Assembly: GCF_013299165.1 (NCBI RefSeq)
Contig: NZ_JAAFKD010000001.1
Coordinates: 186,001-250,000, forward strand
Reading direction: 5' to 3'
Length of the DNA stretch: 64,000 nt
From: Microcoleus sp. bin38.metabat.b11b12b14.051
GTDB lineage: Bacteria > Cyanobacteriota > Cyanobacteriia > Cyanobacteriales > Microcoleaceae
The translations under genes were made by a program, and so were the position numbers. Below are positions 57,483 through 63,993 of this stretch, in pieces. The notes under the pieces are model-generated. The model did not search any database. It had not been told where the DNA came from and worked only from the letters and a program-made list of their open reading frames with translations. The first letter of the stretch is position 1. Each line of letters starts with the position of its first letter.

Positions 57483-57529
57483 TATTTGTACGAAGGCAAA
57501 TTTGCAAAAGTATTGCTGTTATGTTTTTT

Positions 57530-57900
57530 TATTCAAATATTGTCGGTTGGTGCGTCGCTAGGAGATTTGCAATTTTTTTGGGGATGGTTGATGGCGACAC
57601 ACCCTACGAATACTATATGTTTTTTTATTCTAATATTGTCGGTTGGTGCGTCGCTCGGAGATTTTCAATTTTTTTGGGGATGGTTGATGGCGACACACCC
57701 TACGAATACTATATGTTTTTTTATTCAAATATTCTCGGTTGGTGCGTCGCTAGGAGATTTGCTATCTTTTTTTGGGGATGGTTGATGGCGACACACCCTA
57801 CGAATACTATATGTTTTTTTATTCAAATATTGTCGGTTGGTGCGTCGCTAGGAGATTTGCAATTTTTTTGGGGATGGTTGATGGCGACACACCCTACAGG
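57530..57900. repeat. Four tandem 96-base repeats
   Basis: TGCGTCGCT begins at 57551, 57647, 57743 and 57841 (period 96, 96, 98). Each unit holds GGTGCGTCGC and GCGACACACC arms, as in the 89-base array at 38626, and a run of T bases with ATGTTTTTTTATTC. Open frames across it are artefacts of the repeat. Confidence 0.95.
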
Positions 57901-61204: not shown

Positions 61205-62125
61205 TTAAGGATTACTCATTTCTTTTTTTAGTTCTAAGTACCGATAGAGATATTCGGAAATTATTCCGTGCAAAAACAAGTCGCGTGCTGCATTAAACGG
61301 ACTGTTTGGCGCTAGCGGGTGGCGGTTGACAATTACGTGATTCCAGTCGTAATTTCCGGTAATTTCGCTGACATATACTCCGAAGTTTTCATCAAGCTGA
61401 AGCGACATCACTGCTCGTGCAAATTCGTCGCTAGTCAAACACAGAGAATAAAATACTTTAAACAATTCGATCGCCGATTCTAAATCCAGAATTCTCAACC
61501 ACCTGGAGCTTTCACAATCTATTGCAATTTCTACAGGTTGAATGCTATCATAATTAATTCCCCGTTTTTTGACGAGCTGCAACCAGTTGGGATTTGCCAG
61601 CATTGCTTGGTTGTAATCCCAGACAAAGTTATAGAGAATTAAGTCGTGTTCGAGAAACGCATTGTCAGCTAAATCGCTAACTGTGCGCGGATAAAGTTTT
61701 GACTTTTCAATCTGGGTATCCGGGCCGTTGTCAATCAAAAAATTGATAATGTTGGAGCCGATTGAGATGTGCCGCACAATTAAATAACAAGCTTCGGGCG
61801 AGACAAAGTTATTTAGGAAAAATGCGGCGGATTTGTGCATTAATGTGTAAGCCCGAAATTGAAAGGGTAACAGGCGCTTTGCAGTCATGATTACCGCTAG
61901 CAACAAGTTAGCAATGATTTTGATCGGGATGAGCAAATAATTGCGAGTCCAGTTTTGCAAATCCCTCATCATGTATGCTTTTGCAACTAAATCGACGGGA
62001 ATTGACCGATCGCAAAACAGGACATCCCAAACATTCGGATCTCGGCGGTTGTATGGTTTCGGATCATAGGGGATTGAACGCTCCTCTGGGAGAGTTTCGA
62101 TATCTTGTTTTTGCAGTTTTTGCAT
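61205..62125 (-). CDS. Unrecognised partner protein of the KAS III-HDO fusion
   Basis: A 306-residue protein, mostly helical, with one clear hydrophobic stretch near 80-105 (LLIPIKIIANLLLAVIMTAK) and conserved-looking blocks RRDPNVWDVLFCDRSIPVDL and RHISIGSNIINFLIDNGPDT. No family was recognised. It starts on the base where the upstream fusion gene stops (TAATG, one-base overlap), so the two are translationally coupled and probably act in one pathway. It may be membrane-associated. No catalytic motif can be named with confidence. Confidence 0.7.
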   Translation of the reverse strand: MQKLQKQDIETLPEERSIPYDPKPYNRRDPNVWDVLFCDRSIPVDLVAKAYMMRDLQNWTRNYLLIPIKIIANLLLAVIMTAKRLLPFQFRAYTLMHKSAAFFLNNFVSPEACYLIVRHISIGSNIINFLIDNGPDTQIEKSKLYPRTVSDLADNAFLEHDLILYNFVWDYNQAMLANPNWLQLVKKRGINYDSIQPVEIAIDCESSRWLRILDLESAIELFKVFYSLCLTSDEFARAVMSLQLDENFGVYVSEITGNYDWNHVIVNRHPLAPNSPFNAARDLFLHGIISEYLYRYLELKKEMSNP

Positions 62126-63993
62126 TAGCGAATTTCCTCCAATTGCAGCAAGTATAAACGAGCGGTGACGCTAGCGGTTTTGACAATGCGTCGGGCGATA
62201 TCATCGGTCATCCATTCAGCATTAATCAAATTTTCTAATTTCGCTAAATGCGACTCGTCATTCTCTCCATGATAAGCTAAAAACGATACTTGTTCGTCTT
62301 GCAAACCGAGAGTTTCTTTGATTTGTTCCGCCCACTTTCGTGCTAATTTATTGCCCAATCCTTCGATGATAAACATACTACCAATTAAATCGACTGGATT
62401 TTCTCGCGATGCTTGGTGGAAGATAAAAGCTGATAGGGCTTCGCTGCCGATATTCTTATCATATTCGACAATTTTTGACAAGTCGCCACCGACAGAAACA
62501 TAATTTTGTTCTAGCATTTGATAGTCGCGGTGTTCGTCTTGGGCGTGGCCGATAAAAGTCGATCGCAGGCGAAAGTCAATCATGTTAGAAGCCGCGCGCG
62601 CAATCCAGCGAGCTCCCTCGACAACTTGCGGGCGGAGATTGCACAGCAAAGCTTGATAGTCTTCTATGGTAAACTCTCCCCGGTACAATTTGCGGACGAT
62701 GGGAACGGAACGAATGTCGCGATCGAACTTCAGCCAAATCCAGGCTAACTCCCGCAACAAATAAGCTTGTGGAGAGTTGTGTGCGGAGGGCTTAACCCTT
62801 TCCAGAGGCGAAGTTTCGGAAATCTCAAGCGAGTTATAAATTGGAGAAGTCATAGATTTACTGGTGCTTTCCACAGCAGTTAACATCATGTATCCCGTTG
62901 TAAACCGGCCACTTTCCGGAACAAAACAAAAGATTTTTTGCCCGGGCTGCAACTTGCTTGAATTAAACAAATCCTCTAACATTAAATAAATCGACGCGCA
63001 ACCTGTATTTCCGCGGGTGTACAAGTTGGTAAACCATTTTTCTTCTGGAATCATGCAGCCTGCTTGTTCCAGAAGTTCCACAATTTGTCCTCGGAAAAAG
63101 TGAGAGGAATAATGGCACAGCAGCCAGTCAACTTCCTGCGGACAAACTCTCCCATTTTTTATCAAGCTCAGCCAACCTTCTACCCCTAATTTCATTACAT
63201 TGTCTAGCAAGCGAATATTTTGCCGCAAGTCAAAAGCTCCGGCTGTGGCTGCATCGAGGTAGGTTGAATAATCTAGCCAGCTTTGGGTTGCTGTTTCGTT
63301 TGCTAATCCTGAATACATACAAACTGGATAGGCGTTGGCGTGGGAAATTAGCTCGATCCATTCTATTTTTAAGCTAATTCCTGAGGCGTTGGGATGGTTT
63401 TGGATCAAAAATGCTCCGGCGCCGTCGGAAAGCATCCAGCGCAGAAATTCTGTATCGAAAGGTAGGGGTTTTCCGGCTTTGACTGATGTTTCTGCTTCAA
63501 ATTTGGTGTGTTTGAACAGCCGCGAGGGGAATTCGGAGGCTACGGCGATTGCTGTTTGTTTTTTGCCGAGTTCGAGTTGAGATGTGGCGTAGTTTAAGGC
63601 GGTAACTCCGGCGCAGCAAACTCCTTGCGTTGAAACTATTTCTAGGGGAGATAATTCGGAAAGTTCGCCATGTACTGTGCTGGCAAATCCCGGTACTAAT
63701 AAGTCTGGTAAAGTGGTGGCGCAGGCTAGTAAGTCGATCGCCCCTGGTTCCAAATTTGCCTGGGCGATCGCATCCCGGACGGCAAACGCTGCCATTTGGC
63801 TGTTAGAATAGAGTGTTTGCTGCTGTTTGTCGATCGCGTAGTAGCGCTGTTTAATCCCGTTGCTGTTGAGAATGCGCTGTCTGACTCTCGAAGGGCGATC
63901 GGCAATTTTGCCCAGATACTCCTCCATCTCATCATTATTAATCGGTTTTCCCGGCAAAAATTTTCCAATCCGATTGATATAAGCGCTGTGCAT
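62125..63993 (-). CDS. KAS III-like synthase fused to a heme-oxygenase-like (HDO-type) domain
   Basis: A 622-residue two-domain enzyme. Residues 1-375 are a beta-ketoacyl synthase III/FabH-like thiolase with all three catalytic residues: C127 (STQGVCCAG), H294 (LLCHYSSH) and N329 (TRGNTGCAS). After a linker of about 30 residues, residues 412-622 form a helical heme-oxygenase/TenA-like domain with candidate metal ligands E459 (VVEG), E487/H488 (HAQDEH), E544 (FIIEGL) and D579/H582 (ENDESH). This is the pattern of diiron heme-oxygenase-like oxidases. The reaction is not known; condensing an acyl group and then oxidising or cleaving it is inference. The start MHSAYINRIGKFL is complete. The gene begins only 7 bases before the window end, so upstream operon members may lie outside. 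Confidence 0.85.
   Translation of the reverse strand: MHSAYINRIGKFLPGKPINNDEMEEYLGKIADRPSRVRQRILNSNGIKQRYYAIDKQQQTLYSNSQMAAFAVRDAIAQANLEPGAIDLLACATTLPDLLVPGFASTVHGELSELSPLEIVSTQGVCCAGVTALNYATSQLELGKKQTAIAVASEFPSRLFKHTKFEAETSVKAGKPLPFDTEFLRWMLSDGAGAFLIQNHPNASGISLKIEWIELISHANAYPVCMYSGLANETATQSWLDYSTYLDAATAGAFDLRQNIRLLDNVMKLGVEGWLSLIKNGRVCPQEVDWLLCHYSSHFFRGQIVELLEQAGCMIPEEKWFTNLYTRGNTGCASIYLMLEDLFNSSKLQPGQKIFCFVPESGRFTTGYMMLTAVESTSKSMTSPIYNSLEISETSPLERVKPSAHNSPQAYLLRELAWIWLKFDRDIRSVPIVRKLYRGEFTIEDYQALLCNLRPQVVEGARWIARAASNMIDFRLRSTFIGHAQDEHRDYQMLEQNYVSVGGDLSKIVEYDKNIGSEALSAFIFHQASRENPVDLIGSMFIIEGLGNKLARKWAEQIKETLGLQDEQVSFLAYHGENDESHLAKLENLINAEWMTDDIARRIVKTASVTARLYLLQLEEIR

What the first reader, a model, noticed from the sequence alone, without database searches (positions are those of the whole stretch)
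61205..63993. Fusion of a KAS III condensing enzyme with a heme-oxygenase-like oxidase, coupled to an unknown protein
Seen: intact Cys-His-Asn triad in the synthase and Glu/His ligands in the oxidase on one chain, with a one-base overlap to the partner gene. Known: diiron heme-oxygenase-like oxidases (UndA and others) carry out decarboxylation and N-oxygenation on small acyl or amino substrates. Inferred: a cyanobacterial pathway that extends an acyl chain and then oxidatively tailors it, for example to an alkene or modified ketone.
Basis: partly seen in the sequence, partly recalled or inferred. Interest (0 to 1): 0.7.

Follow-up and report, generated by a model that had tools for sequence, protein, structure and literature searches.

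The report
Ring-forming synthase fused to iron oxidase
This cyanobacterial gene joins an enzyme of a type that welds two fatty chains into a ring to an iron-oxidase-like domain, and is almost always paired with a protein of unknown fold; the set probably makes an unknown ring-bearing lipid by a route that does without the usual ring-oxidising enzyme.

Summary
Confirmed: window 62125-63993(-) encodes an intact 622-aa fusion that overlaps by one base the next gene, 61205-62125(-), a DUF6999 protein. But the synthase half is not a chain-extending KAS III: its nearest relatives are the StlD/DarB ketosynthases, which cyclise two acyl chains. The other half models as a heme-oxygenase-like oxidase (HDO). 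Its ligand-type residues are invariant (64/64), but the canonical first His is Asp490 and an invariant His483 stands one turn earlier. DUF6999 models confidently with no fold match in PDB or BFVD and keeps three His and three acidic residues in 64/64.

KS, HDO and DUF6999 occur together, fused or as adjacent genes, in five phyla. In 291 cyanobacterial genomes the 7 with DUF6999 are among the 8 with this HDO. The usual aromatase DarA was not found in 43 of 45 carriers searched. A COQ4-like gene lies beside the operon in 16 of 65 loci and in 0 of 283 non-carriers. Best reading: an O2-dependent route that finishes the carboxylated ring without DarA, giving a resorcinol- or hydroxyquinone-type lipid. 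Reaction and product are inferred.

The parts
62125..63993 (-). KS-HDO fusion gene, 622 aa
   Evidence: ORF; Pfam PF08541 + PF14518; 60 further open fusions among 79 loci
62872..63993 (-). Residues 1-374: StlD/DarB-type ring-forming ketosynthase domain; triad C126 (63616-63618), H294 (63112-63114), N329 (63007-63009)
   Evidence: NF005293 439.7 bits, cut-off 450; StlD 5gk0 1.1e-86; conservation; residues shared with DarB, not FabH
62761..62871 (-). Residues 375-411: linker of variable length (26 to 97 residues, median 37, in 61 fusions)
62128..62760 (-). Residues 412-622: heme-oxygenase-like oxidase (HDO) domain
   Evidence: AlphaFold2 of residues 400-622, pLDDT 90.0; Foldseek 3dde E 3e-7, CtCADD E 2.6e-6 to 9.1e-6, UndA E 9.4e-5
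62248..62547 (-). Putative metal site: H483 (62545-62547), E487 (62533-62535), D490 (62524-62526), E544 (62362-62364), H575 (62269-62271), D579 (62257-62259), H582 (62248-62250)
   Evidence: all invariant in 64 of 64 rows; D490 stands where Citrobacter and Vibrio HDOs have the canonical His; metal binding itself is inferred
61205..62125 (-). DUF6999 partner, 306 aa, one-base overlap with the fusion gene; putative polar site H119, H160, D161, D245, H286, E291
   Evidence: PF22523 1.5e-105; overlap; those residues invariant in 64 of 64 members incl. two divergent ones; model pLDDT 90.4, no fold match at E <= 0.001

Best explanation
The operon encodes a compact lipid pathway. (1) The KS domain, like DarB/StlD, condenses a beta-ketoacyl thioester with a 2-enoyl thioester and closes a 4-carboxy-2,5-dialkylcyclohexane-1,3-dione. 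Shown: family, catalytic residues, residues shared with DarB and StlD. Inferred: the reaction itself and the acyl chains. (2) The tethered HDO domain binds a non-heme dimetal centre and uses O2 to oxidise that carboxylated ring (desaturation/aromatisation or oxidative decarboxylation). It would take over the role of the flavodoxin-like aromatase DarA, which was not found in most carriers. Shown: fold, invariant ligand-type residues, DarA not found in 43 of 45. Inferred: metal, substrate, reaction. (3) DUF6999, encoded with it almost everywhere, is a second obligatory, probably metal-binding, helical lipid-active enzyme or partner of the HDO step. Shown: linkage, conserved His/acidic set, no fold match. 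Inferred: role. (4) Lineage-specific tailoring follows: a COQ4-like protein in some cyanobacteria, a fatty-acid-hydroxylase-family protein in Bacteroidota, a His-rich membrane protein in two split-gene operons. The likely product is a 2,5-dialkylresorcinol, hydroquinone or hydroxyquinone lipid.
For: KS: StlD is the closest PDB entry and the StlD/DarB model the best NCBIfam hit, 439.7 bits, though below its 450 cut-off. R185, S189, C225, M226 and E360 are the same in 11 of 11 StlD/DarB-like rows, the DarA-linked L128 KS included, and differ or are gapped in own FabH (one FabH only). DarB makes 4-carboxy-2,5-dialkylcyclohexane-1,3-diones (passage in PMC5515871). HDO: fold, 64/64 residues. Trio: DUF6999 in 61 of 65 loci L003, L005-L068, and on another contig for two more, L026 and L037. 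In 291 cyanobacteria HDO 8, DUF6999 7, all 7 shared. Separate adjacent genes in Pseudoalteromonas and a Melainabacterium. DUF6999 found in 0 of 7 searched Paenibacillus genomes, of 15 whose KS lacks the HDO. DarA: not found in 43 of 45 carriers (45 of 51 carrier genomes held were given), found in both positive controls and two Flavobacteria. COQ4-like: beside 16 of 65 loci, in 19 of 50 carrier genomes, in 2 of 291 genomes at large, both carriers.
Against: No product, metal or activity is shown. The KS scores just below the StlD/DarB cut-off and far below DarB's (385.7 vs 550). The canonical alpha1 His of HDOs is Asp here, so dimetal binding is not certain. The HDO could act on the acyl chain before ring closure instead. 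The COQ4-like gene was not found in the window's own genome nor in 31 of 50 carriers. The 15 Paenibacillus solo KSs, sister to a fusion, suggest that the KS can serve without HDO and DUF6999. A distant DUF6999-like gene lies next to a solo KS with no HDO in the 14 kb seen (L102). Two carriers do have a DarA homologue. No ACP, ligase or exporter is a constant neighbour.
Confidence: 0.5

Rival explanations
1. One reading: a linear acyl chain is extended by the KAS III domain and then oxidatively decarboxylated or desaturated by an UndA-like HDO to a terminal alkene or modified ketone.
For: The HDO model resembles UndA (4wx0 E 9.4e-5, TM 0.76); UndA is a fatty acid decarboxylase (PMC13108848, abstract start and passages).
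Against: The KS is of the ring-forming type; 3dde and CADD are closer than UndA; UndA works without a condensing enzyme (recalled); the alpha1 ligand set differs.
Confidence: 0.15
2. The KS makes a cyclohexanedione or another 1,3-diketone, but the HDO and DUF6999 tailor an alkyl chain (hydroxylation, desaturation) or a free acyl precursor, not the ring.
For: A fatty-acid-hydroxylase-family gene (PF04116 for the L058 member) lies directly upstream in 8 Bacteroidota loci; 2,5-dialkylcyclohexane-1,3-diones are end products in orchids (PMC5515871, abstract start, passages).
Against: DarA was not found in 43 of 45 carriers, which leaves no known enzyme for the ring; the COQ4-like gene (oxidative decarboxylase family, PMC11495197 passages) points to ring-carboxylate chemistry.
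Confidence: 0.2
3. The HDO domain is not an oxidase: it has lost the canonical His and works like TenA or PqqC without metal, for example as a cyclase, hydrolase or chaperone of the KS product.
For: Canonical alpha1 His replaced by D490; TenA and PqqC structures are among the fold hits; PqqC and TenA need no metal cofactor (PMC11363339 passage).
Against: H-x3-D-x2-H, E544 and E487 are all kept, plus an invariant new His483, 64 of 64, which is not expected without a metal.
Confidence: 0.12
4. DUF6999 is only a scaffold or lipid-binding protein that delivers the membrane lipid to the fusion enzyme.
For: Helix 59-85 of the model is hydrophobic (sequence); no enzyme fold match.
Against: Three His, three acidic residues, K83, R118 and N267 invariant in 64 of 64, including a very divergent member next to a solo KS.
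Confidence: 0.3

Closest known systems
DarA-DarB dialkylresorcinol pathway (flexirubin, arcuflavin, bartoloside)
   Same: Same ketosynthase kind (41% identity to the DarA-linked cyanobacterial KS of L128); expected first product a 4-carboxy-2,5-dialkylcyclohexane-1,3-dione (PMC5515871 passage).
   Different: DarA not found in 43 of 45 carriers; HDO domain fused and DUF6999 added; no larger cluster around it, while L128 has further genes in line that look like a glycosyltransferase and a transporter (read from ORF translations; not scanned).
StlD (stilbene ketosynthase, PDB 5gk0)
   Same: Best PDB sequence match over the whole KS domain, same triad.
   Different: The StlD chain ends where the KS domain ends; different substrates expected; the window KS carries a C-terminal HDO domain.
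Heme-oxygenase-like dimetal oxidases: 3dde (Sden_3740), CADD, UndA, and the HDOs of gammaproteobacterial plasmid operons
   Same: Fold (TM to the model 0.73-0.84 for 3dde, CADD and UndA chains); E544 and H575-x3-D579-x2-H582.
   Different: alpha1 motif H483-x3-E487-x2-D490 instead of E-(x)n-H; fused to a ketosynthase.
COQ4 (coenzyme Q oxidative decarboxylase)
   Same: Neighbouring family in 16 of 65 loci keeps HDxxH-x11-E, with weak Pfam (0.0095) and weak PDB hits to 3msq (a putative ubiquinone biosynthesis protein) and 6e12 (Alr8543; a COQ4 homologue by recall).
   Different: Below Pfam's cut-off; not found in the window's own genome.

Membership tests
StlD/DarB family beta-ketosynthase (NF005293) | Score over the curated cut-off (450 bits) | tested here: not met
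   439.7 bits, best of all models, over 4-374; a Streptomyces plasmid KS beside an ACP gene scores 381.9
StlD/DarB family beta-ketosynthase (NF005293) | Cys-His-Asn triad and residues that set the family apart from FabH (my choice of positions) | tested here: met
StlD/DarB family beta-ketosynthase (NF005293) | Forms a 1,3-cyclohexanedione from two acyl chains | not testable with these tools
   needs enzyme assay
DarB proper (NF053539) | Score over 550 bits; DarA gene beside it | tested here: not met
   385.7 bits; DarA not found in own genome and in 43 of 45 carriers. The DarA-linked KSs of L118 and L119 also miss 550
Heme-oxygenase-like dimetal oxidase (HDO) | Helical HO-like fold | tested here: met
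Heme-oxygenase-like dimetal oxidase (HDO) | E-H-E-H-(D/E)-H ligand motif | tested here: not met
   Here E-D-E-H-D-H with an extra invariant His483; motif definition from PMC11363339 passages. So HDO-like by fold, variant by site
Heme-oxygenase-like dimetal oxidase (HDO) | Binds two metals and activates O2 | not testable with these tools
   needs protein
DUF6999 (PF22523) | Over the Pfam gathering score | tested here: met
   352.6 bits against 27
COQ4 (PF05019), for the neighbouring gene in other loci | Over the Pfam gathering score | tested here: not met
   15.7 and 13.5 against 22.9, two members scanned
COQ4 (PF05019), for the neighbouring gene in other loci | HDxxH-x11-E motif (recalled) | tested here: met
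   H55 D56 H59 E71 invariant in 14 of 14

The most novel reading that the evidence does not exclude
A previously undescribed lipid pathway found in at least five phyla. A ring-forming ketosynthase hands a carboxylated cyclohexanedione to a tethered HDO with a rearranged metal site (His483/Glu487/Asp490 on alpha1) and to DUF6999, a new-fold metalloenzyme. Together they turn the ring into a hydroxylated resorcinol or quinone without any DarA, and in part of the cyanobacteria a COQ4-like protein carries out the oxidative decarboxylation step. It would be a non-isoprenoid counterpart of ubiquinone-head chemistry.
Probability: 0.25. Interest if true: 0.85.

Novelty: new variant of a known kind. Interest (0 to 1): 0.62.

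Why it matters
If the reading holds, it adds a new way of finishing the DarB/StlD ring, an HDO fused to its substrate-making enzyme, an HDO metal site outside the E-H-E-H-(D/E)-H rule, and a function context for DUF6999, for which no paper was found. Because the unit is only two genes, heterologous expression plus lipid MS could settle it. The COQ4-like neighbours would also offer small bacterial systems for a step of coenzyme Q synthesis.

Tried and rejected
Plain KAS III chain extension: rejected because StlD/DarB models and StlD itself far outscore general KAS III models and the residues shared with DarB and StlD are present.

DUF6999 as another HDO or as a COQ4 homologue: profile-profile comparisons gave no relation (probability 0.3%, 0.1%). 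Foldseek put a PolF structure (an HDO) on top but at E 0.68 and TM 0.13, which is meaningless. PDB sequence profile search gave nothing below E 0.28. BFVD gave no match at E <= 0.001. No library of predicted cellular structures was on hand.

DUF6999 tied to the KS alone: not favoured for the main family, since 0 of 7 searched Paenibacillus genomes with solo KS have it. One distant Bacteroidota locus (L102) does have a DUF6999-like gene next to a solo KS, so the tie to the HDO is not absolute; the rest of that genome was not searched for an HDO.

The His-rich membrane protein of L101/L065 as a general component: found in 1 of 45 carrier genomes, L065's own.

Papers on a KS-HDO fusion or DUF6999: searches gave none; on alkylresorcinols with these genera gave only listings of no use. 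The library holds only openly licensed papers. One paper (PMC11965152) was looked into for ligand numbers without result.

VIA-align second look: library not available.
Full report
What is there. The window holds, on the minus strand, a 622-aa ORF (62125-63993) followed with a one-base overlap by a 306-aa ORF (61205-62125). The window is bases 186001-250000 of a 578-kb contig of a 7.07-Mb genome. Read past the window edge, the fusion still begins at the same ATG, so it is not truncated. Upstream and divergent, 373 bases away, lies a 339-aa ORF without a Pfam match, then a PhyH-family gene. Downstream, 791 bases away, lies a 217-aa ORF. I did not scan the other neighbours with family models; as the comparison below shows, none of them is a constant companion.

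The first half is a ring-forming type of ketosynthase. Pfam reports only general KAS III domains, but NCBIfam's best model is 'StlD/DarB family beta-ketosynthase' (439.7 bits over 4-374, slightly under the 450 cut-off) and 'DarB' second (385.7 of 550); general KAS III models reach at most 83 bits. The best PDB match is StlD at 1.1e-86. C126, H294 and N329 are invariant in the 79 rows with letters there, of 82, and align with StlD's. In a 12-row comparison, R185, S189, C225, M226 and E360 are the same in all 11 StlD/DarB-like rows, the DarA-linked KS of L128 included, while the one FabH in it (own genome) has other residues or gaps there. A passage in PMC5515871 states that DarB makes 4-carboxy-2,5-dialkylcyclohexane-1,3-diones from a beta-keto and a 2-enoyl precursor (citing Fuchs 2013, which I did not see).

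The second half is an HDO with an altered site. Residues 400-622 fold with mean pLDDT 90.0. Foldseek finds 3dde (E 3e-7, TM 0.82), CtCADD (E 2.6e-6 to 9.1e-6, TM 0.83-0.84, rmsd 2.3) and UndA (best E 9.4e-5), 52 matches at E <= 0.001, which also include TenA, PqqC and true heme oxygenases. HDOs use an E-H-E-H-(D/E)-H motif with the first E and H on one helix, alpha1, at varying spacing (PMC11363339 passages; PMC13108848 passages). In this family alpha1 reads H483-x3-E487-H488-x-D490, then E544, then H575-x3-D579-x2-H582, and each of these is invariant in 64 of 64 (61 fusions, 3 separate HDO genes). No His follows E487 at +3, +4, +7 or +10 (sequence); H488 is invariant but sits right next to E487, on another face. 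In Citrobacter and Vibrio plasmid HDOs the residue aligned with D490 is His and the one aligned with H483 is Tyr; 3dde also has His at D490's place. So the canonical His is lost and a new invariant His lies one turn earlier. In the seven Bacteroidota fusions of the set two residues are inserted between D579 and H582. That the residues bind metal is inference.

The partner is DUF6999 (1.5e-105). Its model is confident (pLDDT 90.4, pTM 0.88) yet has no match at E <= 0.001 in PDB or BFVD, and its profile finds no PDB sequence below E 0.28. Over 64 members, including the divergent Pseudoalteromonas and L102 proteins, K83, R118, H119, H160, D161, D245, N267, H286 and E291 are invariant among polar residues. 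The L102 protein is so distant that its alignment is less sure (E 1e-4 to the profile; 1.7e-7 to Pfam's model over part of its length). Three His and three acidic residues suggest, but do not prove, a metal site. I could not measure distances, having no coordinates.

Distribution and linkage. They are 60 open fusions of 600 aa or more, 3 sets with separate KS and HDO genes (L065, L066, L068), one broken copy (L067, Microcoleus vaginatus HSN003) and 15 solo KSs, all Paenibacillus. The only gene common to these neighbourhoods is DUF6999, present in 61 of 65 loci L003, L005-L068. Of the four without it, L026 and L037 have it elsewhere in the genome, L039 has none found and L067 is the broken copy. 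In a sample of 291 cyanobacterial genomes (E <= 1e-10) the HDO is in 8 and DUF6999 in 7 of these 8 and nowhere else; the eighth holds an HDO fragment of 137 profile positions. In Bacteroidota 5 of 296 genomes have PF22523, the centre genome of L058 included: four next to a fusion, one (L092/L102) a distant member next to a solo StlD-like KS. Pseudoalteromonas sp. THAF3 carries KS, HDO and DUF6999 as three consecutive genes, as does a Melainabacterium (L065). 0 of 7 searched Paenibacillus genomes with solo KS have DUF6999 (15 such loci exist, 8 were asked for, L078's genome was not held). In the KS tree (72 of 84 rows, 12 near-identical ones dropped) those solos are sister to the Paenibacillus psychroresistens fusion (100/91), which fits joint loss of HDO and DUF6999; several deep rows are long-branched and their places unsure.

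DarA. A DarB-like KS without HDO was found in two of the 291 genomes, next to a flavodoxin-like 311-aa ORF. That ORF is called DarA by position and recall; its Pfam match to a flavodoxin model is below cut-off. Cyanobacterial dialkylresorcinol clusters contain DarA and DarB homologues (PMC8406957 passage). A search with it over 47 genomes (two controls and 45 of the 51 carrier genomes held) found both controls, two Flavobacteria carriers (E about 1e-50) and none of the other 43, the window's own genome included. The Flavobacteria hits show that the search crosses phyla. So the fusion KS mostly works in genomes without a recognisable DarA.

Accessory genes. A COQ4-like subfamily (HDxxH-x11-E invariant in 14 of 14; Pfam COQ4 0.0095 and 0.043, below cut-off; PDB 3msq 0.033 and 6e12 0.045) lies beside the operon in 16 of 65 loci: divergent upstream in 11, downstream in 4, upstream in line in 1. 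It is in 19 of 50 carrier genomes searched, of the 65 loci held, and in 2 of 291 cyanobacteria, both carriers, hence 0 of 283 non-carriers. Fisher's test of 19/50 against 0/283 gives 7e-18, but carriers are related, so that figure overstates the case; the varied gene orders are the better argument. The profile was built from neighbours, so it measures this subfamily only. It was not found in the window's own genome. Human COQ4 replaces a ring carboxylate by hydroxyl (PMC11495197 passages). In Bacteroidota a fatty-acid-hydroxylase-family gene (PF04116 1.9e-21 for L058) directly precedes the fusion in 8 loci; L103 lacks it. In the split-gene operons of L065 and L101 a His-rich membrane protein without Pfam or NCBIfam match takes that place; it is in 1 of 45 carriers, L065's own genome.

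Mechanism proposed. Ring closure by the KS gives a cyclic beta-keto acid carrying a carboxylate; that carboxylate is a natural handle for an HDO. The covalent link could pass on an unstable intermediate before it loses CO2. DUF6999 acts in the same step or the next. In the Paenibacillus genomes searched, HDO and DUF6999 are missing together. The end product is probably a dialkylresorcinol or a hydroxylated, quinone-type lipid. Family, linkage and residue conservation are shown; substrate, metal, reaction order and product are inferred.

Verdict. Observation confirmed; interpretation corrected from chain extension to ring formation. New variant of a known kind: DarB/StlD-type chemistry with a fused, site-altered HDO and DUF6999 and, mostly, without DarA. 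No publication was found in searches of an openly licensed library, which does not exclude papers elsewhere.

Noticed in passing
57520-57897: Tandem array of a 96-base unit, 3.9 copies, 95% matches, over short overlapping ORFs.
   Followed up: no
L093 (own genome contig C12:190879-191523): The own genome also holds a CADD-type protein (TIGR04305, 4.7e-86, over cut-off), the family of self-sacrificing p-aminobenzoate synthases (PMC11965152 abstract start).
   Followed up: partly
L067 (Microcoleus vaginatus HSN003): A broken copy of the fusion with an HDO fragment and no DUF6999 found in the locus; a genome in the survey, G093, shows the same.
   Followed up: partly
L115:2859-7025, L116:2856-7007: Gammaproteobacterial plasmids share an operon of a protein annotated thermostable hemolysin, an AMP-binding protein, an HDO with the canonical motif, an SDR and a hypothetical protein; the one paper search on it listed no study of this operon.
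   Followed up: partly
L102:3320-4399 and the DUF6999-like ORF next to it: A Bacteroidota genome pairs a very divergent DUF6999-like gene with a solo StlD-like KS, without an HDO in the 14 kb seen.
   Followed up: partly
L101:6648-7202 and L065:4641-5234: A His-rich membrane protein family, 45% identical between two phyla, without Pfam or NCBIfam match, directly upstream of KS-HDO-DUF6999.
   Followed up: partly
L112 and L113 (Streptomyces plasmids): StlD/DarB-like KS (44% identity) beside ACP, an unknown protein of about 320 aa, FAD-dependent oxidoreductase, SCP2, FabF, P450 and FabG: a resorcinol-type-looking cluster on linear plasmids, not looked up in the literature.
   Followed up: no
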